Below are positions 25,471 to 58,534 of a stretch of DNA of 64,000 nt, piece by piece. A model generated the notes under the pieces. The model searched no databases. It was not told the origin of the DNA and was given only the letters and a program-made list of their open reading frames with translations. Made by a program: the position numbers and the translations under genes. How positions within the stretch are numbered: the first letter of the stretch is position 1; each line of letters opens with the position of its first letter. The DNA is from Pseudeuparius sepicola. Its lineage: Eukaryota; Arthropoda; Insecta; Coleoptera; Anthribidae. The DNA lies in the NCBI GenBank assembly GCA_963920635.1, contig OY987299.1, positions 66,074,692 to 66,138,691 on the forward strand. The letters are read 5' to 3'.

Positions 25471-26045
25471 CTAACCAAGACATTACCTATATGCCTTGTG
25501 CGGTCGCGGTAGCACGACTTGTATCCGTTGAATGTTCTGTGATCTGAAAATAATCATTCTAGGCATGGCATATATGGCATAGTTTTTTTGACCATAACTT
25601 TTGTATTTGTGGCTTGTCTGTTTTTACGGTATTCGATTTCTTGGAAAAAAACTACACAAGCTTAGTTTTTGAACCATCAATTTAGCCTAAAAACTGCCGA
25701 GATAATCGAGCGTAATGTCTTACCTGGGACACTGTGTACCAATTGGTGTAGGCTGTACCTATTCATATACATACATAATTTTTCAGCTTGGGTCAGGTGG
25801 GGACCATTGATAAGAAATTTAAAGAAATTATCACTGAAAATTTCCAGCTTCTACTAGCATTTATTCAGTGCGGTAGGTAGCACACTCTAAAATTTCCTAG
25901 CCTCAATTATTGTTCTTGTAAAATTAGGGGTGCACTAGCAGGAGGTTGGTCCGGGAATTCTCGCCATTCCAACCACAGGTACTAAGGATTTTCTATTCTT
26001 GAGGAAGGGGTAACTAGGAGGGAACAACCTAACAATACTCACCCG
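25471..26045. other. Unassigned stretch
   Basis: No gene is supported. The right end (25,925-26,047), GC-richer, may continue at 28,033 beyond the mariner element, whose insertion split it. Confidence 0.35.
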
Positions 26046-26050
26046 GTATA

Positions 26051-28032: not shown

Positions 28033-28640
28033 TATATCGGCACAAGAGGCCAAAGAAGAAGCAGCCAGAAGCGGAGAGCGCAGAGAGCGAGAGATCAGAG
28101 AGTAGAGAGTAGTGAGAGAGCGTCCTCGGTGACCGCAGCCTTTTTATATCATGTGGCGGCGCCACCATCGTCGAGTGCACTGGCCACCCATTGGTCGGGA
28201 CCACGGCAGGTGATCGTCCCCACTCTTCTAGTAGCCAAAACGGTCGCCGGGGGCTAGACGGGCAGTTTGGGATGGTTGCACCCCGTACAGGTCTCGGCCG
28301 GTAGTCTCCCTGGATCGGGCATGTCTCATTTACCCGGTTTTCCAAAAAGAACGGTGGCTCTAGCTGCAAGTTGAGTTAGTAATTCGGTTCTACCCCTTTC
28401 CTTTATGGTAACATAAAAATTTATTATTCGGCGGCGGAAAGCCGGAAAATAATCAAAACCAGGATTTAATTAAATGCAATGAAACTCTCGAATATCGGCC
28501 TACTATGTAGAAAAAGTCATCGGTGTGAATATAAAAACTACTACGGCGGACGGCCGGCCGCTAAAAATAGCGCGGCGAGGAATTAGGCGGGTGTAAAATA
28601 AAAATTTAAACTGGAAACTAGTAACTTTATTACACTCCTT
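28033..28640. other. GC-rich, LTR- or promoter-like region
   Basis: It contains a GAGAG-rich run (28,065-28,125), TTTTTATATCA (28,140), CGGCGGCGGAAAGCCGG (about 28,430) and CGGACGGCCGGCCGC (28,550). The base composition is unlike its surroundings. It could be an LTR or leader of an unrecognised retroelement, or a CpG-rich promoter. Frames on both strands overlap and lack domains. Confidence 0.35.
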
Positions 28641-31711: not shown

Positions 31712-32860
31712 CTAACTTAAAATTAATCTATCGGGAGCTTTTAATTGGCTCCTACGCCTTAGCACTCTTTCAGCAGAAGATACATCCTTTATTATACAAT
31801 CAGTGCCATCAGGCTCATTCGTAGTTAACCTATCGTTGTTGACTTTCTCATTAACCAATTCTGAGCGTGGAATGATTTGGAGATCCTTTTGAGGTCTTGC
31901 CGACTCATTTATTTTAAGTTGGTTAGTGTGTCGTTTCCAAAGCATTCCCTGATCAGTTTGAACTTTATAGGTTCGACTTCCAAGAACTTCTACAATAGTC
32001 CCCGGACACCACCTTGGTTGTTGAATTCTGTAATCGCGCACCCAAACTCTGTCGTTTTTGCTATACGAGGGATTAGTTGGTGTAGAGTAATATTTTTTTG
32101 AATACTCCTGTTTACCTTCTACAATAGTTTGAGTGGAGGGTAACAATAAATCGAAATTTGTCCCAACATGCCTCCCCATAAGTAATTTCGAAGGTTTCTC
32201 TCCTGTAGTGCTATGAGGGGTGTTTCGATGATGAAATAAGAAACGTTGTATTATTAAATGAAGATCATAGTCGGGTTTTTCATAAGTACCTTTAAGTAGA
32301 GCATTTTTCATTATCCTAACGGCACTCTCTGCTAACCCATTTGTTGCGGGATGATAGGAAGCTCCGGTGAGATGTTTAATGCCACTATTCTTCAAAAAAT
32401 TTTTGAACTCATCTGAAGTGAAAGTGGTTGCGTTGTCGGTGCAGATTTCCTTGGGCAAACCGAAACGTGCAAACATTTCTCGAAATATTTTTATAGCTGT
32501 TTTTGATGTTAGATTTAATACTTCAAAACATTCGATCCATTTAGAAGTCGCGTCCTGAACTACCAAAAAAATTTTATTTTTGATTGGCCCAAAAAAATCA
32601 GCATGTAGTCGAGTCCAAGGAGTTTTTGGCCATTCCCACATTTCTAAAGAATTATGTTGTTTGTTACTGGCATATATGGCACATGCATGACTCGCTTTTA
32701 CAGTTCTCTCTATGTCTGCGTCTATGGTTGGCCACCACACATATGACCTTGCAAAGTTTTTAATTTTTACTATACCCATATGTGTTTTATGCAATTTTGT
32801 TAAAATAAGATGTTGTAATTTAGGTGGAATAATCAGGCGATATCCCCACGAGACACTCAT
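31712..32860 (-). pseudogene. G2 pol: integrase
   Basis: This open frame of 382 codons starts near the HHCC zinc domain (LHKTHMG supplies the histidines; the Cys pair is degenerate, C-A-I-Y). The core follows with Asp in LHADFFGPI, Asp in CTDNATTF and Glu in NGLAESAVRIMK, the DDE triad, then RFLFHHRNTPHS and the GRHVG tail. The C-terminal part has the small SH3-like DRVWVRDYR segment. No chromodomain is seen. The frame is intact, but its start is created by a one-base shift against the preceding pol frame, so it could not be made as part of the polyprotein. Confidence 0.85.
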
Positions 32861-33605
32861 TTTCTAAAGTTATTTCATTTTTTCTAATAAAAAAAGGCTT
32901 AATTTTTTCTTCTCCACACCGTTCACGCCATCCATTTCTAGTATAAAAAATTATTTTATTTATAGTTGGATCTGTTAGTGTTGCCTTTTTAACATCCAAA
33001 AAACTTGTTGGTAACCACGATTCGTTAAAAAAATTCAAATAGGACACTTCATCCGAATAAGAATTTAAATAGAAAAAGCATTTATTTTCTTTTTCGATAG
33101 TGTTTAAAGGTAATCTGGACAAAAAATCCGCAGTGTTCTTTTCTGATGGTACGTATTGCATTTCGTAGTTGAAGGCCGACAATATATGTGCCCATCTTTG
33201 TAGACGATTTGCCTCAAAAATCGGGATTCCTTTTTTATTTTCGAAAATTACCAGTAAAGGTTTGTGGTCTGTAACTAAATAGAATTTCTGTGCGTAAATA
33301 TATTGGAAAAACTTTTTTACGCCAAAAATTATAGCCGCCGCTTCCTTTTCAATTTGAGAATAAGCAATTTCAGCTTTATTTGACAATCGCGATGCGAATG
33401 CAAAAGGTTTCTCAGTATTATCTTCATAAATGTGACTCAAAGTGGCTCCTAATGCATATTGCGATGCGTCAACTATTAATTTAATTTTTCTATTAGGATC
33501 CTGCGTCCATTCCCATCGAACATCTTTTTTTAGTAGATTGTAGAGTGGTTTTAAAATTGCAGAGGAATTTTTTAGAAACTTGCAATAAAAATTTAACATA
33601 CCCAA
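32820..33605 (-). pseudogene. G2 pol: RT connection and RNase H
   Basis: It begins at the conserved LGMLNFYCKFLKN segment after the RT thumb and contains RNase H motifs: LIVDASQYALGATL (first Asp), IEKEAAAIIFGV (Glu) and VTDHKPLL (Asp), then the VPSEKNTADFLSR segment with its terminal Asp. It ends by frameshift into integrase near 32,850. Upstream it is separated from RT by a stop at about 33,745. Confidence 0.85.
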
Positions 33606-33743
33606 AAAAGATTTTAATTGTGTAACAGATTCAGGACATGGAGCATTTTTTACAGCAATTACACGTTCTTCGGAAGTATGTAATCCGTCTTTGTCTATTT
33701 TATGTCCTAAATATTCTACGGAATTTTGAAATAAGAAACATTT

Positions 33744-35027
33744 TTATTTTTTTACTTTTAATCCACATTCCTGAAGTCGCCAAAAAACATATTCTAACCT
33801 TCTTAAATGTTCATTGTCATCTTTTCCCGTAACTAAAATATCCAGAAAAGTGTCCACTCCCGGGGAAACAAAAATTTGTACCATAATTTTTTGAAAAATA
33901 GCTGAAGCACATGTTATACCGTAAGGCAACCTAGTATATGAGAAAAGACCTTTGTGGGTGGAAATTGTTACCAGTTCCCGAGATTCTTCATTTAATACAA
34001 TTTGTTGGTATGCCTCGGACAAATCGATTTTTGAAAATTTTTGGCCACCCTGTAATTGTGTAAATAAATATTCAATACACGGTAAAGGAAATTGCTGATT
34101 TTCTAAATGAGGATTTAAAGTTATTTTAAAATCACCACAAATGCGTATACCTCCATTCGGTTTTAATACAGGAACTATAGGCGTGCCCCATTGTGAAAAT
34201 TCACGTGGTATCAGCACCCCATTATCAACCAACCTCTGTAGCTCTTTTTCTATTTTCGGCTTTAACGCAAAAGGTACAGGTCTGGGCTTGCAAAATTTTG
34301 GTATAGCCCCTTCTTTTAACTTTAAAGGCACTTTAAATTTTGTGAATTTACCCAATTTTCCATCAAAAATTGACGGGTACCTATTTATTAAATTCTTGGG
34401 GGACGAACCTTGAGTTACAACATTTAAGCAACTGTAGTTCGGGATAATTTTACTTATACCTAAGCCTAGTATTGCTAAATCATTTCGACCAATCAGTGGT
34501 GGTCCTCCATTTTGTACAATATAAATTTTTAACATGAAAAATTTATTTTCGAATTTTATATTTAATTTTACAAACCCTAAAGGCTCAAAAATAAATCCAA
34601 CATAATCTTTTAAAGATAGATCATTTGTATACAATTTTACTGATCCAAAATGTTTTTTAAATAATCTTTCCGAAATGGCGGAATGTGCAAACCCGGTATC
34701 GGCTTCGAAACTTATGGGAATATTTTCTACCAATAATTTTATGTAAATAGGCTTAATATTTCCATTAGAATCTGAATAAATATTATCAAACGCATAGCTT
34801 TTGTTTACATTGTAAGTTTGATCATTTCTAATTTTTTCCCTAATGCAAAAAATACTATCCTCGGCTATGTTTTGATCATTTGCATCATTGTTTGTAGATT
34901 TGGCTATAAAATTTTGAGTGACACAAGTCGATTTAGCAGCCTTCGTGGCGATGTTAGTACAAGCCCCGAATTGGGGATGTGCTGACTGAAGCTGCAAATG
35001 TACTGTTGGCTCCTGCCTGGACTTCAT
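33744..35027 (-). pseudogene. G2 pol: protease and reverse transcriptase
   Basis: The protease domain is in the N-terminal third (ISFEADTGFAHSAIS, with D-T-G as the active site) followed by PPLIGRNDLAILGL. RT follows with RPVPFALKPKIEKELQRLV, GGIRICGDFKITLNP, FSKIDLSEAYQQI (first catalytic Asp) and RLPYGITCASAIFQK. The YxDD box reads TFLDILVTG: one Asp of the pair is missing by an in-frame loss of one residue, so the polymerase is catalytically dead. The frame stops at KVKK-stop, after which the RT thumb continues in the same frame. Confidence 0.85.
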
Positions 35028-35844
35028 TTGTTGCTTCCCAAATCATTCCTATCTTTTTGATTTGGTTGATGTTACACCGTACTGATGATTGCCAAATAGC
35101 ATGAAACTCGTGTATGCGGTTACTAGTTTTTTTTTGTTTTCTAACTTTGAGTGCTTATGCCCATTATCACTTTTTCTTGTATTAACTTCGGCGTAACAGG
35201 CATATTTGCATGTTTTTATTTTATAACAAATTCTGCAACAATGGTGTTTTAACTAAAACCATCGTGTAAATTTGTTTCGTCGTGTGGCGCCAGTGGCGAT
35301 CGCTTGAAACAGCGCTATGCACAGTTCTTTAATATAGTGTTGGTCCAGATCAAACCTGAGACTATACAATGGTCAAACTGTGCAACAAACCCTCACATTT
35401 CAAATTCGTATTGAAACATGAAACCTGCCCTTATTATTGCGTTACGGAAGTGATATAGTGTTCAACTGAAAATATAATTTATTATTGAAAAATAACAGGA
35501 AATAAAATAGAAATACGAGTAATACAAAAATTAACATTTTTTGCCACTATAGATATCACATTAGCATAAGTTATAAAATAATCACAAATTAAAAACAAAC
35601 CTCCATTACAAATAAAAAATTATTAGGCGGGTGCATCCATTTTCAAGAATTCGAAAATATATTTTATTTTTTATCCGTTCACTCTCTTATTTTTTATCTT
35701 TGGAGGATATTTCGAGAGCGGGCAAAACAAATTCTGCCCGCCCAGCCTCCCCAGCTTCGACTTTGCCCCTACCACAACAGGAGGGCCCCCGCGGCTAAAT
35801 AAAAATGTATTTTTTTCTTTCTCAGCTCGGTTCCGCCCCCTCCT
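35028..35844 (-). other. Insertion/deletion-scrambled gag-pol junction of G2
   Basis: Gag homology stops near 35,930 (about residue 105) and protease begins near 35,000. The zinc-knuckle region is not seen. The sequence contains a GC-rich part (35,690-35,920) with GGTGCGCCACTGCACC and an A/T-rich part, probably a further insertion. Its borders are not clear. Confidence 0.45.
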
Positions 35845-37812: not shown

Positions 37813-37919
37813 TGAAAACGTTACCCGAACACCGGCAATGTAAAAACTGTTTAGTTCTCGTCTAGACACTACACACCGACTGGCTGGATCTGTGCCAGTA
37901 GTAATACAAAGAGAGTACG

Positions 37920-38125
37920 GGCTCACTTTGACCTCAGTTGACCCCTTGATCCTGAGAGTCCCCTACGGCCCGAGGTCACGGGAGCAAAGTGGCTACGTCA
38001 TGCCCGAGGTCGCGTGACGTCACCGGATGACCCCAGTTGACCCCTAGATCCTGATAGGTTAACCTTTGACCTTTGGGCCACGTGTGACCCCCAGTTGACC
38101 CCCCCCCCACTCCAACGACGGGGCA
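37920..38125 (+). promoter_or_regulatory. Arm control region: TGACGTCA, AGGTCA half-sites, repeated CCCCCACTCCAACG
   Basis: TGACGTCA is at 38,015-38,022. A direct-repeat-1 nuclear-receptor site occurs at 38,060-38,072 (TAACCTTTGACCT, i.e. AGGTCA-A-AGGTTA on the other strand). GTTGACCCC/TGACCTC words recur at least five times, CACGTG is at 38,080, and CCCCCACTCCAACG occurs twice at 38,106-38,145. The same block is present in the right arm (51,125-51,345). The motif matches are direct; regulatory use is inferred. Confidence 0.5.
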
Positions 38126-38155
38126 ACCCCCACTCCAACGGCTTGGTGGGGTGAG

Positions 38156-38166
38156 GTCTATATATT
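38156..38166 (+). promoter_or_regulatory. TATA box of the left-arm two-ORF unit
   Basis: TCTATATATTCG lies about 75 bp before the ATG at 38,236; a start of transcription around 38,190 would fit. A second TTATATACA lies at 38,191-38,199. The right arm has the same arrangement at about 51,100-51,110. Confidence 0.6.
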
Positions 38167-38235
38167 CGTGCGCAAGAGCAGTTTTCCCGTTATATACACT
38201 TACAATTTCCCACAGTCTGATTTGCCGAGTTCAAA

Positions 38236-38544
38236 ATGCAGTCGTTCCTGAATCACCTGAACAAGAATTTGATCGTCAAGAAATTCGAAAGCGTTCAAAA
38301 TATGGACGTGGATGAAAATTTTCAAATCACGAGCGTGGACAAAGTGAACACGCAATACGGAGAGAAGGTCTACGTAGAGTTCGAAGAATTTAAGACGGTG
38401 CTGCCGCAACGATACACGGCCGAGTTTACGCCCCAACGGATCGAAGAAATTAATAGGGATATCGGTAACGGAAGGAGGTATTACATGAAGAGTCTTGGAC
38501 CCGTCGGCCGATCTACAAATATCGAATTTATTGTAGAACCATGA
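38236..38544 (+). CDS. Arm protein 1, 102 aa (left copy)
   Basis: ATG follows CGAGTTCAAA and a TATA box. The protein has a basic/hydrophobic start (MQSFLNHLNKNLIVKKFES), a beta-rich middle (KVNTQYGEKVYVEFEEFKTV) and the segment LPQRYTAEFTPQRIEEINRD, ending with G-rich turns and short strands. The YGEKV-x-V-(D/E)-x-(F)-x-(V)-x-LP-(K/Q)-RY layout resembles small OB-fold-like proteins that accompany invertebrate DNA viruses and Polinton-like elements; that likeness is from memory and unproven. A single-stranded-DNA-binding role would suit such an element. Its TGA overlaps the ATG of the next ORF. The right copy is identical in protein. Confidence 0.75.
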   Translation: MQSFLNHLNKNLIVKKFESVQNMDVDENFQITSVDKVNTQYGEKVYVEFEEFKTVLPQRYTAEFTPQRIEEINRDIGNGRRYYMKSLGPVGRSTNIEFIVEP

Positions 38545-38663
38545 CGAAGCTGGAGTACAGAAGAAAACTGCAACAATATTTGAAGAATTTAGAAGCATTG
38601 AAATATGAACTTATGTTATATGAAATTAAAATGAAGATAAAACATATTGACTTACACAATTAA
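38541..38663 (+). CDS. Arm protein 2, 40-aa coiled coil (left copy)
   Basis: Its ATG lies in the ATGA that ends arm protein 1 (38,541-38,544). This stop/start overlap suits termination-reinitiation on one mRNA. It has 40 codons, TAA at 38,661-38,663, and an AATAAA signal follows at 38,669-38,674. The peptide is lysine- and glutamate-rich with leucine/tyrosine spacing (LEYRRKLQQYLKNLEALKYE) that would form one amphipathic helix or coiled coil. The right copy differs at one codon (Ile to Phe near residue 29). Nothing known was recognised. It may be a partner of arm protein 1. The conserved frame in both arms argues for coding, but the arms are so alike that selection cannot be judged. Confidence 0.6.
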   Translation: MTKLEYRRKLQQYLKNLEALKYELMLYEIKMKIKHIDLHN

Positions 38664-38668
38664 TTTTT

Positions 38669-38674
38669 AATAAA
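38669..38674 (+). terminator. AATAAA polyadenylation signal, left arm
   Basis: It lies six bases after the TAA of arm protein 2 and has an inverted copy in the right arm near 50,594-50,599. Confidence 0.6.
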
Positions 38675-40213
38675 CGTTTAAAAATCTTTTGTTGTGTTTT
38701 TTATAAGAATCTTTGTGTTGAAGGGAAAACACCTGAAGCATCATATTATAATAAAACTCTCACTCTAAGCAATAATATCACTCTATTCCACTGTTATGTG
38801 TATACAGGGTGATTCTTAACTTATACACATAAATTTGGAAAATTGTAGGTTATGTCAAGTAATGGCTAATAATGAAAAAAAAAGTCTAATAAAATTGTTA
38901 TCGATAAGGTCTGCGTTTGTGATCTTATGAACCATAATTTTTAATTTATTTGTGCAAATAAACCCCGAATTGTTCAAGTACACAAAAATATAACTCAGCT
39001 GTTGCGTCGCATCGGGTTACTCGCTGCGAACGCGTGACCGCATAGTAAATATATAGTAAGAGAAAACACGTGGAATAGTTCACGACAGACGCCTGCTTTG
39101 TTTGGTCGAAGGCCTCCGTCCGACTGGCATGTAATTGCCCGAACAAAATCCACCCTTCCCCCTTGCACGCGTTTCGCGCATGCGCAGTTCCGCACTTTTG
39201 ATACCTATGAAAATTCGAAAAATTTTGAAAATTTTTTATTCAAAAAATGTAATTTTAAAAAGGTCCTGATCCTATAATCCCGATAACATTTTGGGAAATT
39301 TTCATTTTTTGACGGTAAAATGTACAAGACAAGACTCAGACGAATGTTTTATATACAAGTGCAGATAGAATTTTTTCGAGTGACTGATAAAAACATTATT
39401 ATAATAGTTAATCGGAAGGGCCCAGATAACATAGGAAATTTTGTTTGAACAAAATCTGTAAAAAAATCCAAGACGTGAAAATGTAGGTAGAATTTTCGAA
39501 TAAGTTTTGTATACCGGGAAAAATATATGTAAAGGTAAAAATAACGTCAGTTTCACTTGGAAAAAAATGATGAAAAAATTTCAGTAAAAAAAATACGATG
39601 TAGAGGTTGTACCAAAAAAAATTGGAAATAATTATTTATTCCAGTAAAATATACACAAGACCGAAAAAGGTAATTGCGCAGCTGTCCCATTTTATACACC
39701 CTAGCTGTTTCAGTTCATCTCGTTTGGAAAAATTTTAGGGGTTATTACTTTTTTAAATACCGGTTTCCTCAACCTTATTTGAAAGTAAATATTTTTTAGT
39801 TCCCCACAGAAGGAAATAATGACGATATTTTATACCGGTGGATTCAAAAAATATATAAGGTTAGGAAAAAACCTTGGTAGGCAAACGCGGCTCTGCTGAC
39901 CAGACAAAAAAAAAACCTTAGTCGACAAATAATGGCCTATAAGAAGGGTGCGTGATTCCACGTATCAGTTCGAGTGCTCCAAGATGCAAGTAAGTATATA
40001 CCAGCTGTCCCATTTTTAAACAGCTAGATATTTGGAAACCTTTCGTAAAAAAATTCCCAAGGATTACATGAGCAAAAGAAAGAAAAAAATGTAAATATAC
40101 CAGCTGTCCCATTTATAAACCGCTTGATATCTTGGAAACGAAAACTTATATAAAGGAAGTAAAAGCTATATCTTAATAGGCGGAGGACCGACTGTCATTC
40201 AGACAGGTGAAAA
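38675..40213. other. Non-coding part of the left arm with repeated AGCTGTCCCATTT motif
   Basis: GCAGCTGTCCCATTTTATA (39,678), CCAGCTGTCCCATTTTTAAA (40,001) and CCAGCTGTCCCATTTATAAA (40,102) occur here, and GGCTGTCCCATTTTATG at 41,384 just inside. A TACAGGGTGATTC word at 38,803 resembles a mariner-type MITE end and is also in the right arm. No credible gene is seen; short frames lack domains. Confidence 0.5.
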
Positions 40214-40612
40214 TTTTTTGTGATTTTTTGTAGAAGTTTTTTGCCAAAATTTTTTTTTGTCAATTTTTTTTTCGTCAAAATTTTTTTTTGTAAAATTTTT
40301 TTTTGCCAAAATTTTTTTTTGCCAAAATTTTTTTTTGGCAAAAATTTTTTTTACCAAAATTTTTTTTACCAAAATTTTTTTTTGCCAAATTTTTTTTTGC
40401 CAAATTTTTTTTTTGTCAAAATTTTTTTTGTCAAAATTTTTTTTTGCCAAATTTTTTTTTTGTCAAAATTTTTTTTTGTCAAAATTTTTTTTGTCAAAAT
40501 TTTTTTTTTTTAAATTTTTTTTGACATTTTTTTTGCCAAATTTTTTTTTTGTCGAATTTTTTTTTGCCAATTTTTTTTTTGCCAAATTCTTTTTCGACAA
40601 AATTTTTTTTGA
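40214..40612 (+). repeat. T-rich minisatellite, unit like TTTTTTTTGCCAAAA
   Basis: About 25 imperfect units of 14-18 bp alternate T runs with G(C/T)CAAAA. The right-arm counterpart (48,600-48,945) has fewer units. The Phe/Lys-rich frames that span it in three phases are artefacts of the repeat. Confidence 0.9.
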
Positions 40613-40950
40613 TACAAATATAATTGCTAACGTTTAATTTGTTTACCCCATTTACGAAAATGATAACAAAATTGGATCAGACAAGATGTTTTTTCGAAGT
40701 ATAGTTTTTAAACACAGGGTGCCACCACCGGTTTTACGATATAGGTTTCAAAATGCGACGCAAGTACATAAAAAAAATACCCTAGAGATAAGAAAACAAA
40801 ATACAACTCACCGAAAGATTCTTGATGATGTATAAAAAGAAATCAGGTTACATGTAATGCCCCAGACAGTAAAATAAACATCCCCGAGCTATCAGATATA
40901 ACCAAACATCATTTTTCTAACGGCACAGTCATTTTCACGGGAAAAACAAC

Positions 40951-42935
40951 CAGTAACCGTTCAAATTCCATAGATAGGTACTGCCGTAATCCAAAATTTC
41001 ACTGAACTACGCGTATCTATTATACTGAAGTAGGTACTGATACACTTCCATCTTTCCAAAGAAAAACAAACACGAAACTCAGACTTTTCATATATTTATT
41101 ACAACGCCTCGATAGAGTCTTTATTTGTGGCCACGACCAAGAATCTACTGAAGCAAGTGCGACGCATAGGACGTGAAAAGTGCCGAGTTGGTTTTATTAA
41201 ACAATGAAACTTATACCTACGTATATATAAAATAAATGAGAAATATGCCAGAGATGTGAAACCTAATTGTGTTGCAAGTTTGAGGGTCCAAAAAAAATAT
41301 TGGCTTTAATTTTTTAAGGTGAGAAACACATCTAACAGCCAGTTTGGAAATATACAAGGCAAAAAAAGTAGTGATGTGGCTGTCCCATTTTATGTTTTAT
41401 ACAGGTTGGGTTATTTTAGAATAGTTGTTCAATAGACCGAGACAACATCATAAACGCTTCCCGTTAGAACAGAATGTGATGAAAAGAAAAATTCCATCTG
41501 GGTCAAGCTACTACATAACCAAAATAAAAAATACTGAACGTTATAAAATTTAAAAAATCATATTTTCTACGGATTTTTATCCTCTGAAAATTGTTCTTGT
41601 GTAAAATTCAGTTTCTCTGGGTCAAGCTAGGTGGTAACTATATAACCAAAATAAAAAATACTGAACGTTATAAAATTTAAAAAATCATATTTTCAAGGGA
41701 TTTTTGTCCTCTGAAAATTGGTTTTGTATAAATTGAGTTTCAATAAGTTACTAATTGAGATAATAGGAAAAAAATCTTAAGAATCTCTTATAGAATTCTG
41801 AGACAACGACCCTGAGAGTAAATATCATACAAAAATCTTTGTGCGTTGACTTTCAACTCAATTTAATAATTAGGTTTAATAATGACAATTTTCTCGATTA
41901 TCTAGAATCAAAAATATTGCGAGTGGCAATTTTCTAGATATCATGTGAAGCCTTATTATTGCGTCGTAAGTTAGAGGATCCAAAAATATTGGCTTAAATT
42001 GTTTAGTAAATGCGATTAAAATATGTTTAGTTTATCAACAGTTAATTGTAACAGCTTATAATCTTAGAAGCTAAACTCTTTAAAAAAATTTTTAGACAAA
42101 AAGTTGTAGTTTAATAATGGTCAGTTGGATTCCTTTTGAATCATGTTTGCATATTACCTACAAGGAGTTACAACCTCAAAACATAGAAATCGCTCATTTT
42201 AAACCGATTTAATAAAAATTTCACCAAAACAATACTTTCACTCATATGATACACTTCTGATTAATAAAAAAGGCACCATAGGTAGTAATAATAAGATATT
42301 CAACGGAATTTTTATCGACTGTTTGCCCATTTTGCTAGCTTTTGGGGGTATTCCTTGATATTTTAGACTGATAAAAATGAATAATAAAAATTAAAAATAA
42401 AAATTTCACCAAAACAATACTTTCACTCATATAATACACTTCTGATTAATAAAAAAGGCACCATAGGTAGTAGTAATAAGTTATTCAACGGAATTTTTAT
42501 CGACTGTTTGCCAATTTTGCTAGCTTTTGGGGGTATTCCTTGATATTTTAGACGGATAAAAATGAATAACTAAAATACAAAACGCACTGTTGACTTTACT
42601 TACGTGAATAGTAAGCCTATAATACGTATCGAAAACAGAGAAATATTCAGGTCAAGAAAAAAATGGCCTAATTTACAATAAAAAATATAGCAGACAACAT
42701 AGCGATGACACCGATTGACCCGTTTTGCTGGTAAAAAGTAAACAAAGGTACCTATTGCGATTCTAATCAGGCATTTCCAACGGAGATGCCTTCAATACGC
42801 CCACGTGGGAGAGCCGCCGGTGTTTCGTCACATGCAAATCGCCGCTCGAGATGGAAGCATCTCGGCCTTTCGACGCATTGCGCGCCACTTCGTTTGTTGA
42901 AATCTGGCCGCCGCGCCGCCGTCAACTTGCCCGGA
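40951..42935. other. Left-arm-only segment, 1,985 bp
   Basis: The right arm joins the flanking sequences directly (at 48,261/48,262), so this piece was lost from the right arm or gained by the left. It contains a tandem duplication: about 41,470-41,590 and 41,610-41,730 (CTGAACGTTATAAAATTTAA) and about 42,205-42,380 and 42,395-42,570 (CAAAACAATACTTTCACTCAT). No gene is supported. A CpG-rich patch begins at 42,780. Confidence 0.7.
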
Positions 42936-43135
42936 GATGCCTCGCTACGTGGTGCGTCGCATACTCGCCGTCGCGTGGTGTATGGGCGCCAGCTTTTGGC
43001 CAATTTCAAGGGAATCGTTTTTCATATTTTCGACGGATTTTCGTCCTTTTTGCAGACGTTACACTGCTAAATTGATCCGTTTTGCTGGCAAAAAATATTT
43101 CTATCGCCATGACTGAGTCACGACGCTTGGCCTTA
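42936..43135. repeat. Left inverted arm, inner block
   Basis: It pairs with 48,060-48,262 (CTCGCTACGTGGTGCGTCGC and onward to GACTGAGTCACGACGCTTG). Together with 37,897-40,950 it makes up the whole arm. Confidence 0.85.
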
Positions 43136-43770
43136 TGCGATAAACAATGTGTGTGGGTAGAGACATTCGCGTTAAAAGGTGTAACATAATATGCATGCTT
43201 TCTTCATGCAATGAATTGTAAATAAAATTCATACATCGAACTGTGACTGGTGACTGGATAAAAATGCCGTAATAAGAATCGACTGTTTTCATGAATAACC
43301 TCATTGAATTTTATGCAGTTTTAGAAAGTTAATGTGGGTTGGAAAATTTGTATTATATGCTGGATGCAGAGAAAAAGTGGAAATTTCATATAAGTTGAGC
43401 TGTTTATGAATGAAAAAAAGTTGAGAGAACAATACCTACTTATACAAACACAACAGAACGAGACAGTCTTAAAGAAAATGGGCAATTCACTCTTTGTGTA
43501 TAGGACTCGAACAGCGACTTATTATTTTAATCGGTACTGTTGTAAGAAATTCAGAAATGGAATTTTGGTTTATTTAATAAAAATATATACTTACACATTT
43601 TATCTTTATCTTTTTATGGTGCACTTTAACATATTTTCAGTTTGTAACATGTTTCTCAGGAGAACAAAATCAGGAAATACTTGTCTCTAGGATTATATTA
43701 TTATTACATTTTAGTTTCAACATGTTTTTGCACTTATAAGGGAGGATAGAAAAAAAACCAAAAATATACA
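43136..43770. other. Unique centre, no gene supported
   Basis: A/T-rich. The + strand frame 43,406-43,690 is hydrophobic with no domain. TTTATT at about 43,773 is the complement of an AATAAA signal for the minus-strand gene above. Confidence 0.4.
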
Positions 43771-43928
43771 TAAAACATATTTATTGTGTATAAAAATATA
43801 AAAGAAAATATACTTAAAAGCTAAGAATACGTATTAAATTTAAAACTAAAAGAAGGATAGGTATCTATAAACAACGTTGGAAAATAAAGACTCAAAAATT
43901 TTTTAAAAATATTTAATGTGAGAAAAAA

Positions 43929-44671
43929 CTACTTTTTTACCACATTAAATCTTTTTAAAATACCAGCAGACAGCCGTTTATCCCTCTCCATTTTCTCAAT
44001 TTTGGCTATAGATACCTGCTCCCTTTTTCTCAGTCGTTCTTTCTCTCTCCTAATAGTCGCCAGTCGATGTTGCTCCTCTCTCAAGGATTTTAGATTTTCG
44101 GCGTCCTTTTGTTTCAGCCCTTTTGAGACCTGTAATATATAGGAACCGAGTGAAGTACTCCCAGGACTAGTCAGCTCCTCGAATTCATCCTCGCTGTCCA
44201 TCTGCTGACTAACACTAATGTGCACGTCACTAAAGGAGTCCTCGCTGTCCATGCCCAACTGACGCATGTCTTTACCACCATTTCCTTTCAATTGTGGGTT
44301 ATTCGTGTTTTCCACACCACACTGCTCGACGTCCTCTTGCCGATGAACCGGTGAAATAATGGAATTCGGACAGAATGCCATTATCTCGTCGTAACAAGGC
44401 ACTTGGGAGGGCGACACGAAGGACGCACTATTCAAATCGGGCATGTTGTATGACTGTGCAGAGTCGATGGTTGGCTGAAAAGAAAAAAAATAATAAGTTT
44501 AATTTAGAAAAAAAGTATTTTTCAAAAATAAAGTTTAAAAAATAATTTTGTATGAAAAAAATTGTTGAAGATTACCAGAAAACCAAGATTTATACTTACA
44601 GGCATTATTAGCATATTGCTAAGGATAGTAGGTTTCTTTGTCGAGAGAGACAACTTCTTAGGGTGCTGCAT
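43929..44671 (-). CDS. Two-exon acidic/coiled-coil protein, 205 aa
   Basis: Exon 1 is 44,671-44,600 (24 codons, starting MQHPKKLSLS) and ends CCT|GTAAGT. Exon 2 starts after TTTTCAG at 44,474 and runs to the stop at 43,929. The frame is continuous across the 125-base intron. The N-terminal half has conserved-looking short motifs (NMPDLNSASFVSPSQ). The middle is acidic and serine-rich (MDSEDSFSDVHIS, QMDSEDEFEELTS). The last about 65 residues form a charged coiled coil (SLREEQHRLATIRREKERL) ending in a basic tail. TTATAAG at about 44,732-44,738 is a possible TATA box and AATAAA lies past the stop. The family is unknown; the layout suits a nuclear regulatory or scaffold protein. A captured host gene is possible. 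Confidence 0.65.
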
Positions 44672-44739
44672 TGTAAGTATCCAAAATACACAAAAAACAC
44701 ACCACTGGAACTACTATTGTGAATCAAGAAACTTATAAG

Positions 44740-47355
44740 AGAGGAGGCTGTGAACTGGCTAATGGCCATTCAACAAACCTCTTTAAAGGGAAAAAATTCG
44801 ATGTCAGTCAAAAAATATAGTAGGAGAAAAACGATTTGCCCACTCTAGAATTTTTAAAAAACTTGTTTATTGATCTGAGCGAGACTGTGTGGCGTTATGC
44901 GTGGTCATTAAATTTAATATGTGGTAAACAAGAGGCCACGGGGATGAACGATATAATGCAATGTAATCCAAAAAAAATTAGCTAGACTGTATGGCGTTAT
45001 ACACGTTCTTTAGGGCCGGACTGGGCTGATGGACTAGGGGGAATTAGATTGTTAATACATCGCAGAGTCTTTGCGAAATTGAATGTGATAATGTTTAAAG
45101 AAACAAATCGCGCATGGGTTGTCCAATCATATCGTTGCACAGTTAATTAAAAATGTAGACGCAAAAACATATCTCCCAAAAAAAAAAGTTCAACCTACTT
45201 TCCGCTTAAAAATCGAACAACAGAGGTATCTCCCATCGCTCACAAAACCAATTCCAGAAAGGACAAGAACGCCAAGGCCGGGCGCACTCAAATTTCGTAT
45301 CGGTGTTTTCTTTTAGTCGAAAAATATTTCCAAGGTAAAAGCTGAACTTTTGGGGTGTATGTTGAAAATTTACATTTTGGGGTACGAATGAGGTTGATCG
45401 CGGCGTCTCGGCTAGAAGGTCAAAATGGGTCAAAATGGGCCTAAGGTTTTGAAATTTTTTTTTACACCTACCTAATTCTTCATCTTGAACAAGTTTCATT
45501 AACAACATTTTAACGTGTAAGCTACAGAAAAGGCACTCTTCTAAAATAGTATAATATTTTTAATTAAAAGATACCTCTGTAAGGATATTAGGCAGACTTT
45601 TAGGCTATGTGTTCTCTAGAAAAATTGTTAGAGTGCTTGCTTTAGGTAGCGAAAATCGCAGGGGTGGAAAGTCACGGTGGAGTCATTGATAAACGGTTCC
45701 ACTTATCGAAATTTGGAAGGAAGTCACTGTGGTAATCATCGTTAAAATCTTCTATTACCTACGCTGCTATAATTAAATATTTATCTACGGCTTGGTTCTG
45801 TTTCTTTTCCAATGCCTAAATAGTACATTTTATAATATTAATTTTGTTTCCTCTCCAATATATTGTACGGTGTTTGTATCACATATATCTGTGAAAAACA
45901 ACGTTTCAGATATTTCTCAGTTTTTAAGAGCGGTGTTTGGTCAGAAACGATCTAGTGGATGATGGGGTAGTAAAAAGGCCGCCGTTTTTCCAGAGCCTGT
46001 TTTGAATACACCCCACCAAGTCTTGACTTGTCATTATGATAGGTATTGCATACTTTTGTATAGGAGTCAGCTTTTGTTAACCCAACTTCTTTCTGTTATC
46101 TTCTTCCACCATTTTAATCTCAATTCATCTACCCGACGCCACAATATGTTACTAATCGTGAATAAATAGCACATTTCATAGTGAAGTTTATAAACCAGTG
46201 GGATTTGGCAATTTTGTTTAAATATAATGAAAAATAGCTCGTTTTGGTCTTGATTATTGTTAGACAAATTATCGCAAACTTCACTTTTCAGAAGAATGAT
46301 TTTATTGTGATGTAATGATTGTACAAAGACGCCAGCGCAAACACGATCACGATAATTAACTGCTAACCTTAAACAAAACAGCTGACGATTTTATGCGATT
46401 TTTATTATGACTTAGCTTGTTGTTCCTTTGTTCCGCGCTGACTTAGCCTATTCTTCCCGTGTATGGGTATTTTAAAGTAATACGTATATTGTGACCTAGC
46501 CTGTTTTTCCCCTGACTATTACGTTGGTTTGAAAGAGCACACAATTTACCACAAGATGGCACTGTAATCCCAATTTCAACAAAAAATGACTTGGCCTGTT
46601 TTTCCCGTGTACCCTTCATATGGTTTTGTTTCTCTCAAGATTGGGTTTCAACCCCAGTGGCGAAAGAAGGAAGGCCCCAACTTGCATTATCTAGTTTTTA
46701 CTCTAATCTTTTCTAGTCTATATTGTTTAGGATTTGTATGAAAAAATGAATTTTGTATCATCAAGTTGGCGACTCTCCCTGCAGCTCGAAACGGTTGTTT
46801 GTGATTCCATACTTTCATAATATAAGCTTATAAGGTAATATCCCATATTTTTAAATTACACTATTCTTTGTATCTCTCTAATATGTTTGATCAAACATGG
46901 ATTAGACCTCCTGCGCCCTGCATTCTACCTCAAAGGTGGTGGGAAAATGAATGCATATAGTTTTGTTACAATTTAAAAATATATATAAAAGAACAATTCA
47001 ACCTATTTATAACTAATATCCATATGAAACTGTACGTCTAATTTGCGATTAAAAATTTTTGTTGAAGGTGTGAAACATTTTCGATTTTTTTTTATTGCGT
47101 TCTGTATTCTACCTCGAAGTAGGAAACGAACGCATGATGATTGTCAGTTAAATGCGACGTGGTTCTTCAATTTCTCGGCCACGCTCGTCGGCCAAATTTT
47201 TTATCGAGACTTGCACAGCAAAACGCCGGGCGCCACGGAGCGCCGCTGCGTCTAGGGTTCCGATGCAAAATATCTCAGCCGCGCTCGTACCTGGATCGTG
47301 GGAGCACAGATGTTTGATGACACCCGGATTTCAGAGGCGTACATCAGGGTGTAGT
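44740..47355. other. Unique centre between the two genes
   Basis: No gene is supported. Features: a pair of GACTGT(G/A)TGGCGTTAT words at 44,884 and 44,993; a possible diverged fragment of the 15.66-kb foldback family at 45,480-45,560; four copies of a TGAC(T/C)TAGCCTGTTTTTCCC-type word (46,408-46,610). A CpG-richer segment at 47,140-47,350 has no recognised domain. Confidence 0.45.
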
Positions 47356-47862
47356 CTAATTTCTTGCTGAATCATCAATGTTGGAGGATTTCGGCAATAA
47401 TGGACCCGATTTTGAGGTGCTTTGTGAAAAAAAAAAAAGAAGAAAAATTGACACAAACATTTTATTAGGGGATCTATACATGGTGTTATAATTTATTTCT
47501 CCGTAATTAATACATGAACAGTTTTCAAAAAGTTTTTCTGAATTGGTATTAGAACAGAAAGACGTAAATTGATTAATTTTCTTAATATGATTCACTAGTC
47601 TTGACGCATATCCTCTTCGACGATATTCTTCATGGGTAAAAACAAAATTGAGATTTTTCGGGTTGGAGTGTTTGTTTAAAGGGTCGAAATCAATTTTTGA
47701 CATTAGGACAAATGAAACCGGTTTAGCATCAACGTATAATATATAGCACGATATTTTTTTATCTAGGCACCACTGATCGAACATACTTCTTGCAATACCA
47801 TCTCTCACGACTTGTCTTATTTTGTTTACTGCTTGTCGATCAAAAAAGAATCTGATCTCCAT
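47356..47862 (-). CDS. GNAT-family N-acetyltransferase
   Basis: The first ATG in frame is at 47,862 (MEIRFFFDRQAVNKIRQVVR); upstream codons exist only after a GTG. Strand-rich segments CYILYVDAKPVSFVLMSKI and NLNFVFTHEEYRRRGYASRL follow; the latter holds the acetyl-CoA-binding motif R-x-x-G-x-A (RRRGYA). FCSNTNSEKLFENCSC matches the C-terminal GNAT pattern in which a Cys/Asn region precedes the substrate site. GNAT enzymes transfer acetyl from acetyl-CoA to amines of proteins or small molecules; the substrate cannot be told. The last 40 residues are low-complexity, and an AATAAA lies within the frame at 47,461-47,466, so the true end may be earlier or spliced. It is cargo unusual for a Polinton-like element. 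Confidence 0.7.
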   Translation of the reverse strand: MEIRFFFDRQAVNKIRQVVRDGIARSMFDQWCLDKKISCYILYVDAKPVSFVLMSKIDFDPLNKHSNPKNLNFVFTHEEYRRRGYASRLVNHIKKINQFTSFCSNTNSEKLFENCSCINYGEINYNTMYRSPNKMFVSIFLLFFFSQSTSKSGPLLPKSSNIDDSARN

Positions 47863-47892
47863 GTTGCACAGACGTTTGAATGAAAAATCATC

Positions 47893-47985
47893 GGTCACAC
47901 ACTTTTAAGACATTACCCCCACCACTTTTATATTTTTCCATACACTTTTTAAGACGTTACCCCCACCACTTTTATAAATTTTAAA
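47893..47985 (-). promoter_or_regulatory. Duplicated TATA-containing unit before the GNAT gene
   Basis: On the minus strand (A)TATAAAAGTGGTGGGGGTAA occurs twice, about 47 bp apart (47,896-47,932 and 47,943-47,980), each followed by GTCTTAAAA. Duplicated core promoter units directly upstream of the ATG are the simplest reading. Confidence 0.55.
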
Positions 47986-48599
47986 CTAGCCGAAACCTTG
48001 ATCCATTTGAGATGTTAAGATATTTGGGGAAGCGTTTGGAAGTTGCGCCAGCAGCGAATTGCATAAGGTCAAGCGTCGTGACTCAGTCATGGCGATAGAA
48101 ATATTTTTTGCCAGCAAAACGGATCAATTTAGCAGTGTAACGTCTGCAAAAAAGACGAAAATCCGTCGAAAATATGAAAAACGATTCCCTTGAAATTGGC
48201 CAAAAGCTGGCGCCCATACACCACGCGACGGCGAGTATGCGACGCACCACGTAGCGAGGCATGGTTGTTTTTCCCGTGAAAATGACTGTGCCGTTAGAAA
48301 AATGATGTTTGGTTATATCTGATAGCTCGGGGATGTTTATTTTACTGTCTGGGGCATTAGATGTAACCTGATTTCTTTTTATACATCATCAAGAATCTTT
48401 CGGTGAGTTGTATTTTGTTTTCTTATCTCTAGGGTATTTTTTTTATGTACTTGCGTCGCATTTTGAAACCTATATCGTAAAACCGGTGGTGGCACCCTGT
48501 GTTTAAAAACTATACTTCGAAAAAACATCTTGTCTGATCCAATTTTGTTATCATTTTCGTAAATGGGGTAAACAAATTAAACGTTAGCAATTATATTTG

Positions 48600-48945
48600 T
48601 ATCAAAAAAAATTTTGTCGAAAAAGAATTTGGCAAAAAAAAAAATTGGCAAAAAAAAATTCGACAAAAAAAAAATTTGGCAAAAAAAATGTCAAAAAAAA
48701 TTTTACAAAAAAAAATTTTGACAAAAAAAATTTTGACAAAAAAAAATTTTGACAAAAAAAAATTTGACAAAAAAAAATTTTGACAAAAAAAATTTTGACA
48801 AAAAAAAAATTTGGCAAAAAAAAATTTGGCAAACAAAAATTTTGGCAAAAAAAATTGTCAAAAAAAAAATTTGACAAAAAAAAATTTTGACGAAAAAAAA
48901 ATTGACAAAAAAAAATTTTGGCAAAAAACTTCTACAAAAAATCAC
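48600..48945 (-). repeat. A-rich minisatellite of the right arm
   Basis: This is the inverted counterpart of 40,214-40,612 with fewer units, showing slippage after the arms were made. Confidence 0.9.
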
Positions 48946-50026
48946 AAAAAATTTTCACCTGTCTGAATGACAGTCGGTCCTCCGCCTATTAAGATATAGC
49001 TTTTACTTCCTTTATATAAGTTTTCGTTTCCAAGATATCAAGCGGTTTATAAATGGGACAGCTGGTATATTTACATTTTTTTCTTTCTTTTGCTCATGTA
49101 ATCCTTGGGAATTTTTTTACGAAAGGTTTCCAAATATCTAGCTGTTTAAAAATGGGACAGCTGGTATATACTTACTTGCATCTTGGAGCACTCGAACTGA
49201 TACGTGGAATCACGCACCCTTCTTATAGGCCATTATTTGTCGACTAAGGTTTTTTTTTGTCTGGTCAGCAGAGCCGCGTTTGCCTACCAAGGTTTTTTCC
49301 TAACCTTATATATTTTTTGAATCCACCGGTATAAAATATCGTCATTATTTCCTTCTGTGGGGAACTAAAAAATATTTACTTTCAAATAAGGTTGAGGAAA
49401 CCGGTATTTAAAAAAGTAATAACCCCTAAAATTTTTCCAAACGAGATGAACTGAAACAGCTAGGGTGTATAAAATGGGACAGCCGCGCAATTACCTTTTT
49501 CGGTCTTGTGTATATTTTACTGGAATAAATAATTATTTCCAATTTTTTTTTGGTACAACCTCTACATCGTATTTTTTTTACTGAAATTTTATCATCATTT
49601 TTTTCCAAGTGAAACTGACGTTATTTTTACCTTTACATATATTTTTACCGGTATACAAAACTTATTCGAAAATTCTACCTACATTTTCACGTCTTGGATT
49701 TTTTTTACAGATTTTGTTCAAACAAAATTTCCTATGTTATCTGGGGCCTTCCGACTAACTATTATAATAACTGTTTTTATCAGTCACTCGAAAAAATTCT
49801 ATCTGCACTTGTATATAAAACATTCGTCTGAGTCTTGTCTTGTACATTTCACCGTCAAAAAATGAAAATTTCCCAAAATGTTATCGGGATTATAGGATCA
49901 GGACCTTTTTAAAATTACATTTTTTGAATAAAAAATTTTCAAATTTTTTCGATTTTTCATAGGTATCAAAAGTGCGGAACTGCGCATGCGCGAAACGCGT
50001 GCAAGGGGGAAGGGTGGATTTTGTTC

Positions 50027-50160
50027 GGGCAACTACATGCCAGTCGGACGGAGGCCTTCGGCCTCCGTTCCTCCTGGCACGTAGTTATTTAGAAGATAAT
50101 TGGGTGAAATTTGTAGCCTATTGTTCTATATGCGGTTTCAGCAAAATCGCTGAGTGCTCG
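50027..50160. other. Hairpin and 100-bp segment present only in the right arm
   Basis: ACTACATGCCAG...GGACGGAGGCC is followed after TTC by GGCCTCCGTTCC...CTGGCACGTAGT, an imperfect stem of about 26 bp including the perfect CGGAGGCCTTCGGCCTCCG. The left arm lacks one half plus about 60 bp, with TCG at both edges of the gap. Confidence 0.7.
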
Positions 50161-50604
50161 ACCAAACAAAGCAGGCGTCTGTCGTGAACTATTCCACGTG
50201 TTTTCTCTTACTATATATTTACTATGCGGTCACGCGTTCGCAGCGAGTAACCCGATGCGACGCAACAGCTGAGTTATATTTTTGTGTACTTGAACAATTC
50301 GGGGTTTATTTGCACAAATAAATTAAAAATTATGGTTCATAAGATCACAAACGCAGACCTTATCGATAACAATTTTATTAGACTTTTTTTTTCATTATTA
50401 GCCATTACTTGACATAACCTACAATTTTCCAAATTTATGTGTATAAGTTAAGAATCACCCTGTATACACATAACAGTGGAATAGAGTGATATTATTGCTT
50501 AGAGTGAGAGTTTTATTATAATATGATGCTTCAGGTGTTTTCCCTTCAACACAAAGATTCTTATAAAAAAACACAACAAAAGATTTTTAAACGTTTATTA
50601 AAAA

Positions 50605-50727
50605 TTAATTGTGTAAGTCAATATGTTTTATCTTCATTTTAAATTCATATAACATAAGTTCATATTTCAATGCTTCTAAATTCTTCAAATATTGTTGCAG
50701 TTTTCTTCTGTACTCCAGCTTCGTCAT
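50605..50727 (-). CDS. Arm protein 2, 40-aa coiled coil (right copy)
   Basis: It mirrors 38,541-38,663, with the same ATGA overlap (50,727-50,724) and stop TAA at 50,607-50,605. One codon differs (GAA-TTT against GAA-ATT, changing Ile to Phe). The + strand frame 50,670-51,068 over the same bases is antisense and not credible. Confidence 0.6.
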   Translation of the reverse strand: MTKLEYRRKLQQYLKNLEALKYELMLYEFKMKIKHIDLHN

Positions 50728-51032
50728 GGTTCTACAATAAATTCGATATTTGTAGATCGGCCGACGGGTCCAAGACTCTTCATGTAATACCTCCTTCCGT
50801 TACCGATATCCCTATTAATTTCTTCGATCCGTTGGGGCGTAAACTCGGCCGTGTATCGTTGCGGCAGCACCGTCTTAAATTCTTCGAACTCTACGTAGAC
50901 CTTCTCTCCGTATTGCGTGTTCACTTTGTCCACGCTCGTGATTTGAAAATTTTCATCCACGTCCATATTTTGAACGCTTTCGAATTTCTTGACGATCAAA
51001 TTCTTGTTCAGGTGATTCAGGAACGACTGCAT
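50724..51032 (-). CDS. Arm protein 1, 102 aa (right copy)
   Basis: It is identical in protein to the left copy (38,236-38,544) and transcribed outward-to-inward from its own arm promoter, so the element has two convergent copies pointing to its centre. Identity between the arms suggests recent origin or continuous homogenisation by copying one arm from the other. Function: see the left copy; an OB-fold-like DNA-binding role is possible but unproven. Confidence 0.75.
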   Translation of the reverse strand: MQSFLNHLNKNLIVKKFESVQNMDVDENFQITSVDKVNTQYGEKVYVEFEEFKTVLPQRYTAEFTPQRIEEINRDIGNGRRYYMKSLGPVGRSTNIEFIVEP

Positions 51033-51379
51033 TTTGAACTCGGCAAATCAGACTGTGGGAAATTGTAAGTGTATATAACGGGAAAACTGCTCTTGCGCAC
51101 GAATATATAGACCTCACCCCACCAAGCCGTTGGAGTGGGGGTTGCCCCGTCGTTGGAGTGGGGGGGGGGGGTCAACTGGGGGTCACACGTGGCCCAAAGG
51201 TCAAAGGTTAACCTATCAGGATCTAGGGGTCAACTGGGGTCATCCGGTGACGTCACGTGACCTCGGGCATGACGTAGCCACTTTGCTCCCGTGACCTCGG
51301 GCCGTAGGGGACTCTCAGGATCAAGGGGTCAACTGAGGTCAAAGTGAGCCCGTACTCTCTTTGTATTACTACTTGTGCC

Positions 51380-57329: not shown

Positions 57330-58325
57330 CTGAATCCAATGTCACTCAGTCTACCCAATAGACACGAGTGGTTAAGGGTGTCGAAAGCCTTGGACAAATT
57401 GCACCTGACTCCAAAGGCAATGTCACGTCTGTCCTCCAACACTCCCTAAAGAATTCTAAAAAGAGCTGGGGTTGTGCTTTTCTTTTTGAGAAATCCATGC
57501 TGGAACCCGTCAAAGAAGTTGAATTTGTCGAGAAAAGAAACAACCCTTTTGTATAGTCGTCTCTCCAGCTCTTTAGCAAAAACAGATAACATATTGACTG
57601 GGCGATAGTTTCTGATTTCATTCGCGTCCCCTTTTTTGTATAAGGGAATGACGCTCTGGAAAAATTCCAGAGGAGAAAGAGGCCTTGAATTAGCCTCAAG
57701 AGGGACTGAAAGTACTTTGATAGTTCTCCTCAATAGACGAGCAGAAACACCATCGAAACCACTAGAATTTTTGGAGGAAAATTTACTCACAATATCGCAA
57801 ACCTCCTGCCTGGAGGTAGCATGTATAAAGAAGGAGTCCCCTTCCAGTGGAAACTGAGGGAGAGTTATCCTTAACAACCGCACTGCAGCCAGATTCATTG
57901 ATCAAAGTAGGTATTGAATTAACAAAGAAATTATTAAAGTCGTCCAAAAGATTGTTGGTCTCTGGTAACTTATTATTCTTTGTTTTGCCAATTGTTGAGT
58001 TAACAAGATTCCACATGCATTTTGATTTGTTAGGAGATCCGCAGATCATGTTTTGAAAGTACGCTTTTTTGGCCTCCTGCAACTTGCTTATCTTCATCTC
58101 CTGGATTACAGGTTTAAAGAGTGGATCTACATGCGCTATAGTTTCAATCAATTTAAGATGTTCTCTAAAATCAACAAGCTCTTTGGAGATCCAGCCAGAC
58201 TTGTTACTTTTCCTAATTTTGCACTTCACCAGTGGAAAACAATTCAAGAAGGAAGTGTTTACAATATTAAGGAAGATATCCATCTTACTGTCAACTGCAT
58301 CACAGTTAAAAACCTCCGAGGTCAA
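57330..58325 (-). pseudogene. LINE ORF2: linker and RT fingers
   Basis: The frame at 58,325-57,783 carries the region before RT (SGWISKELVDFREHLKLIE). Frame 57,898-57,446 includes GFDGVSARLLRRTI, FQSVIPLYKKGDANEIRNYR and FQHGFLKKKSTTPAL, the classical LINE RT fingers motifs, with a frame change at about 57,790. No intact ORF remains. Confidence 0.8.
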
Positions 58326-58534
58326 AAAAGAGCTTACACATCATGCAATGTATTATATTTTTCCTGCTTCCGACAAGTTCCTGTTAGGTATAAGGTATAG
58401 GTAATTTTAATTAAATGCTATGGTGTAGATTGTGAGTAATAATATACAAAATAACCATTGCTGAATTACTAAAAATTAAAATCAGTAATAAATATAAGTA
58501 GAATGCAGTGATAATAAAAAAATACTTTAGTTTT

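What the first reader, a model, noticed from the sequence alone, without database searches (positions are those of the whole stretch)
37897..51373. A 13.5-kb Polinton/Maverick-structured element with arms over 3 kb and no recognisable core genes
Seen: perfect 6-bp duplication TGTGCC, AGT...ACT termini, near-identical inverted arms (about 3.26 kb aligned) and three gene units with no polymerase, integrase, protease, ATPase or capsid. Known: Polinton/adintovirus integrases make 6-bp duplications and the ends start AGT, but the arms are usually hundreds of bases. Inference: a non-autonomous cargo-carrying lineage, or a new type of self-replicating element.
Basis: partly seen in the sequence, partly recalled or inferred. 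Interest (0 to 1): 0.92.

Follow-up and report, generated by a model that had tools for sequence, protein, structure and literature searches.

The report
Coreless Maverick-ended element with long arms
A 13.5-kb mobile DNA element, in what looks like an arthropod genome, has the end signature of Maverick/Polinton virus-like transposons but none of their recognisable genes, so it most likely moved with a relative's enzymes; other copies could not be looked for.

Summary
A 13,477-bp element (37897-51373) is flanked by a perfect 6-bp duplication, TGTGCC; of 96 AGTAGT...ACTACT pairs in the window only this one has such a duplication. The arms are 99.3% identical over 3,004 aligned bases. AGTAGT...ACTACT is the commonest end motif of vertebrate Mavericks, which also have 6-bp duplications (PMC8097293, passages). 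Six-frame Pfam scans find no polymerase, integrase, protease, ATPase or capsid, only an acetyltransferase; the longest open frame is 189 aa. Gene units: a 102-aa ORF with an overlapping 40-aa ORF in each arm, an inferred two-exon gene, and a GNAT gene. The left arm spans 5,245 bp, the right 3,316. Best reading: a non-autonomous element inserted by a Maverick/adintovirus integrase supplied in trans. Rivals: a Maverick that lost its core, another 6-bp superfamily, a new replicator. The decisive test, other copies or a helper in the same genome, could not be run: the genome search did not complete 18 times and the protein database was switched off. New variant of a known kind.

The parts
37891..37896 (.). 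left target-site duplication TGTGCC
51374..51379 (.). right target-site duplication TGTGCC
37897..43141 (+). left arm, 5,245 bp, starting AGTAGT; 40953-42936 is absent from the right arm
48058..51373 (-). right arm, 3,316 bp, ending ACTACT; about 100 bp near 50064-50163 absent from the left arm
37897..38196 (+). GC-rich terminal region (0.567 against 0.352 in the window) with CAGTTGACCCC at 37935, 38034 and 38092; candidate origin or integrase-binding end (inference)
38159..38235 (+). TATA-like sequence and leader of the arm gene (promoter inferred by eye)
38236..38544 (+). arm gene, left copy, 102 aa, DNA identical in both arms
38541..38663 (+). second arm ORF, 40 aa, its ATG overlapping the TGA of the first (ATGA); AATAAA at 38669
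50724..51032 (-). arm gene, right copy, 102 aa; the 40-aa ORF follows with one amino-acid difference
40237..40611 (+). 15/16/31-bp minisatellite of the left arm (right-arm partner 48603-48928)
44600..44671 (-). inferred exon 1 of the two-exon gene, followed by GTAAGT
43929..44474 (-). inferred exon 2, preceded by a pyrimidine tract and CAG; 125-bp intron; no family match above a cut-off
47356..47862 (-). GNAT acetyltransferase ORF from ATG at 47862 (Pfam PF00583, 30.7 bits, cut-off 20.7, scored on the frame read from 47904)
43142..48057 (.). unique core, 4,916 bp

Best explanation
A non-autonomous, Maverick-ended mobile element. Shown: Maverick-type ends, a 6-bp duplication, near-identical long arms, and no recognisable replication, integration or virion gene. 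Inferred: a retroviral-type integrase supplied in trans by a full Maverick or adintovirus in the same genome recognised the AGTAGT ends and inserted the DNA, leaving the 6-bp duplication; replication, if any, used the helper's protein-primed polymerase starting at the ends, which could also keep the arms alike. The arm gene, present twice, the two-exon gene and the GNAT gene are what it carries; the arm protein may bind single-stranded DNA (weak).
For: Ends AGTAGT//ACTACT with a perfect 6-bp duplication (1 of 96 pairs) match the commonest vertebrate Maverick motif. Rve integrases of polinton-like viruses typically leave 6-bp duplications (PMC12220804), and 6 bp is given for Polinton (PMC10045372). 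Size 13.5 kb lies in the 12.7-24.6 kb range of intact vertebrate Mavericks. No core gene in six frames, longest frame 189 aa, although the same library finds rve and RVT_1 in the window's Gypsy element and GNAT through a six-frame read. Yutin et al. 2015 suggest that integrated polinton-like viruses without integration enzymes could use resident Polinton integrases in trans (PMC4642659, passages).
Against: No second copy, helper or autonomous relative has been seen: the own-genome search did not complete (18 calls), and scans of viral and prokaryote contigs found no relative. Arms of 3.3-5.2 kb exceed the 1,447 bp maximum of intact vertebrate Mavericks. The motif statistics I could read are from vertebrates, and the host here is not identified. 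Core genes too divergent for Pfam, or split by many introns, would be missed; only the integrase search has a positive control in this window.
Confidence: 0.6

Rival explanations
1. A single decayed Maverick/adintovirus copy that lost its core genes by internal deletion or replacement; a remnant, not a mobile lineage.
For: No core genes. Decay is the rule among known Mavericks: in vertebrates most are mutationally degraded, and in the Hessian fly 408 copies are fragmented with deletions (PMC8504770, passages). About 2.7 kb between the inner genes (44672-47355) shows no Pfam match and holds a fragment that to the eye resembles a DEAD-box helicase. The 1,984-bp difference between arms looks like a deletion from the right arm.
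Against: Arms 99.3% identical, perfect duplication, arm ORF identical in both arms and GNAT frame open: the insertion looks young, yet the whole core would have to be gone.
Confidence: 0.2
2. A cut-and-paste transposon of another superfamily with 6-bp duplications, moved by a DDE transposase in trans.
For: IS3EU and GingerRoot make 6-bp duplications; long internally repetitive arms recall Galileo and Foldback (start of one abstract).
Against: IS3EU ends are TA..TA and GingerRoot ends TA..TA or TG..CA, not AGTAGT..ACTACT; Galileo and Foldback duplications are 7 and 9 bp (recalled).
Confidence: 0.1
3. A self-replicating linear element of a new kind whose own enzymes have no recognisable family.
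For: Gene-bearing arms, duplicated arm gene with overlapping ATGA ORFs; arm and two-exon proteins match no Pfam or NCBIfam family above its cut-off and PHROGs only at E 0.036 or weaker for the two-exon protein and not at all for the arm protein.
Against: The coding content found (102, 40, about 205 and 168 aa) leaves little room for a polymerase and an integrase; ends are those of a known class.
Confidence: 0.06
4. Assembly artefact of a palindromic join.
For: Inverted arms are a known assembly hazard (recalled); no reads seen.
Against: Arms differ by 21 substitutions and by 100- and 1,984-bp stretches, and a 6-bp duplication bounds them.
Confidence: 0.04

Closest known systems
Maverick/Polinton elements (vertebrate reference set, PMC8097293, passages)
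   Same: AGTAGT//ACTACT ends, perfect 6-bp duplication, inverted arms, 13.5 kb size
   Different: no PolB, integrase, protease, ATPase or capsid found; arms 3.3-5.2 kb against 46-1,447 bp; one gene apparently spliced, while the intact vertebrate elements have intronless genes
Drosophila-associated adintoviruses (PMC8363768, passages)
   Same: 13.3-14.6 kb contigs of Polinton-type elements
   Different: adintovirus 1 encodes PolB, integrase and homologues of capsid, protease and FtsK proteins, and the second nearly the same set; none found here
Integrated polinton-like viruses without integrase (PMC4642659, passages)
   Same: inserted without an own integrase; trans use of a resident Polinton integrase proposed
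   Different: those keep capsid and packaging genes and lie in algal genomes
IS3EU / GingerRoot transposons (PMC10045372, passages)
   Same: 6-bp duplications
   Different: TA..TA or TG..CA ends

Membership tests
Maverick/Polinton | (AGT)2//(ACT)2 or (AG)3//(CT)3 ends | tested here: met
   AGTAGT...ACTACT; motif from PMC8097293
Maverick/Polinton | 6-bp target-site duplication | tested here: met
   TGTGCC both sides; 1 of 96 pairs
Maverick/Polinton | terminal inverted repeats | tested here: met
   99.3% over 3,004 aligned bases; longer than the published vertebrate range
[quoted passage not shown]
   no Pfam match in six frames; longest frame 189 aa; no positive control for PolB in this window, very divergent or many-exon versions not excluded
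Maverick/Polinton | retroviral-type integrase | tested here: not met
   no rve match in the element; rve found in the window's Gypsy element
Maverick/Polinton | capsid, protease, packaging ATPase | tested here: inconclusive
   no Pfam match, and longest frame 189 aa; but no positive control and Pfam's coverage of these Maverick proteins was not checked
Non-autonomous Maverick derivative | ends shared with an autonomous Maverick in the same genome | not tested
   The genome search unanswered in 18 tries
Non-autonomous Maverick derivative | several copies, each with its own 6-bp duplication | not tested
   same; within the window there is no second copy
IS3EU/GingerRoot | TA..TA or TG..CA ends | tested here: not met
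   ends are AG..CT; family ends

The most novel reading that the evidence does not exclude
A satellite of Mavericks/adintoviruses in an animal genome: it keeps only ends, cargo and a duplicated arm gene for a single-stranded-DNA-binding protein, is copied by the helper's protein-primed polymerase and packaged and integrated by the helper, a virophage-like parasite of a virus-like transposon. (A special case of the best explanation; its probability lies inside that one.)
Probability: 0.2. Interest if true: 0.82.

Novelty: new variant of a known kind. Interest (0 to 1): 0.55.

Why it matters
In the papers I saw, Mavericks are found through their polymerase, integrase or capsid genes, so coreless elements with their ends could be missed. 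If this one has siblings, Mavericks mobilise other DNA in trans. That has been suggested for algal relatives (PMC4642659); under the names 'non-autonomous/nonautonomous Polinton' or 'Maverick' I found no paper (3 papers of the library hold any of six phrases, each only 'Polinton-derived'; subscription papers and Repbase reports are not covered). It would give Mavericks a deletion-derivative or satellite class and a route for carrying genes.

Tried and rejected
Led nowhere: relatives of the arm protein, the 171-aa frame and the GNAT protein in viral contigs (14, 23 and 74 stretches matched a pattern, none confirmed by tblastn) and of the arm protein in genome contigs (84 stretches, none confirmed; that collection is bacterial and archaeal). 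The 17-base end pattern in viral contigs matched 6 stretches, about what my own rough estimate gives by chance; the loci were not examined. The terminal repeat pattern matched 0. PDB by sequence: best E 1.9 for the arm protein and 0.76 for the GNAT protein. Rfam: 0 matches.

Rejected: HC2 histone-like Pfam matches are below the cut-off and I place them in the low-complexity minisatellite; DUF3613 and DUF3919, GerPC and clathrin light chain are below cut-off. The GNAT protein's NCBIfam matches to aminoglycoside acetyltransferases (best 21.1 bits, cut-off 140) are far below cut-off and say only GNAT; PHROGs also says acetyltransferase (1.4e-6). The difference in divergence between outer and inner arm (2 of 1,200 against 10 of 1,479, minisatellite left out) is not significant (Fisher p = 0.077), so terminal homogenisation is not claimed. 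Coding evidence for the arm frame is modest: 18 of 2,000 Markov simulations reach its length and an antisense frame of 132 aa is open too; third-position GC is 0.563 in the sense frame, 0.436 in the antisense one, 0.51 in the two-exon gene, but 0.296 in the GNAT gene, below the window's 0.352.

Papers seen as passages only: PMC8097293, PMC12220804, PMC10045372, PMC4642659, PMC8363768, PMC8504770, PMC11071296, PMC2836005, PMC6431247, PMC10120064, PMC6035795. All others: search listings.

Full report
The structure. The window contains an insertion of 13,477 bp at 37897-51373, bounded by TGTGCC on both sides. The element starts AGTAGTAATAC and ends GTATTACTACT. The inverted repeat ends at the duplications; the flanks beyond are at background (52 of 200 inverted, 54 of 200 direct). 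Of 96 AGTAGT...ACTACT pairs between 0.5 and 40 kb apart in the window only this one has a 6-bp duplication.

The arms. They align from 37897-40952 to 48263-51373 with 21 substitutions in 3,004 aligned bases (99.3%), two of them in the outer 1,200 bp. A further 205 bp at 98.5% lie inside. The left arm therefore spans 5,245 bp and the right 3,316: 1,984 bp at 40953-42936 occur only on the left. I see no duplication at the junction printed, so a deletion from the right arm is the simpler account (inference). The right arm holds 100 bp near 50064-50163 that the left lacks, and the minisatellite in both arms (40237-40611, 48603-48928) differs by 49 bp. The first 300 bp are GC-rich (0.567 against 0.352 for the window) and contain CAGTTGACCCC three times.

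The genes. Each arm has, reading inwards, a TATA-like sequence (38159 on the left), a 102-aa ORF (38236-38544) identical in both arms, a 40-aa ORF whose ATG overlaps the stop of the first, and AATAAA at 38669. The core has a minus-strand gene, by eye with a GTAAGT donor and a pyrimidine-CAG acceptor, that joins in frame across a 125-bp intron (44600-44671 and 43929-44474); no transcript was seen. It also has a minus-strand GNAT acetyltransferase ORF (Pfam 30.7 bits, cut-off 20.7). No other Pfam family passes its cut-off in six frames, and the longest stop-to-stop frame of the element is 189 aa. In the same window the library finds RVT_1, RNase H and rve of a Gypsy element, so a conserved integrase would have been seen; a highly divergent one might not, and there is no such control for polymerase or capsid.

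What it is. Vertebrate Mavericks most often begin with AGT twice and end with ACT twice, have 6-bp duplications, measure 12,723-24,620 bp when intact, and have arms of 46-1,447 bp (PMC8097293, passages). Rve-type integrases typically leave 6-bp duplications in polinton-like viruses (PMC12220804, passages). Two other 6-bp superfamilies, IS3EU and GingerRoot, end in TA..TA or TG..CA (PMC10045372, passages). So the ends say Maverick, and the contents do not. By definition it is not a Polinton, of which PolB and integrase are universal signatures (PMC4642659, passages). It works like the product of a Maverick integrase acting in trans (confidence 0.6). The main rival is a decayed copy: most vertebrate Mavericks are degraded and Hessian fly copies are fragmented (PMC8504770, passages), but this one's arms, ends and duplication look fresh.

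How unusual. Long arms alone are not decisive: complete polinton-like viruses are described with arms of hundreds to thousands of bp. The combination of Maverick ends, gene-bearing arms and no core gene I did not find described. The direct search was (3 papers, all listed, none with 'non-autonomous' or 'nonautonomous' before Polinton or Maverick). Broader listings, seen only in part where long, had no such title: 20 of 403; 13 of 13; 15 of 50; 12 of 12; 4 of 4; 10 of 30; 10 of 23; 3 of 3. Subscription papers and Repbase reports are not covered. The idea of trans-integration is in print for algal relatives.

What could not be done. The source genome could not be searched and the protein database was switched off. 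Thus copy number, helper and host are unknown. The host is probably an insect or other arthropod, judging by its retroelements and the DUF4817 ORF, and this rests on recall only.

Noticed in passing
31712-35042: Gypsy-type LTR retrotransposon, minus strand, in adjacent frames: RVT_1, RNase H, integrase zinc finger and rve core.
   Followed up: partly
17817-18824, 5185-5691, 57446-58340: Further reverse-transcriptase fragments: RVT_1 matches in the first two; the third looks like a non-LTR element by eye, but its frame 57446-57901 has no Pfam match in that call.
   Followed up: no
26043-28040: 465-bp inverted repeats (97.8%); the ORF 27103-27780 with a DUF4817 helix-turn-helix match lies between them and runs into the right one. 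A possible DNA transposon.
   Followed up: no
10968-11555: 588-bp palindromic element flanked by an 8-bp repeat AGTTCTTA, with similar sequence near 20022 and 24789.
   Followed up: no
45924-46095: Minus-strand fragment that by eye resembles the Q-motif region of DEAD-box helicases, broken across frames; the piece 45924-46076 has no Pfam match.
   Followed up: no
50064-50163: About 100 bp only in the right arm, by eye forming an inverted repeat with the neighbouring GGCCTCCG sequence; possibly a hairpin lost from the left arm.
   Followed up: no
39681, 40004, 40103, 41379 and 49051, 49150, 49472: GCTGTCCCATTT recurs four times in the left arm (the last in its left-only stretch) and three times, inverted, in the right; meaning unknown.
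   Followed up: no
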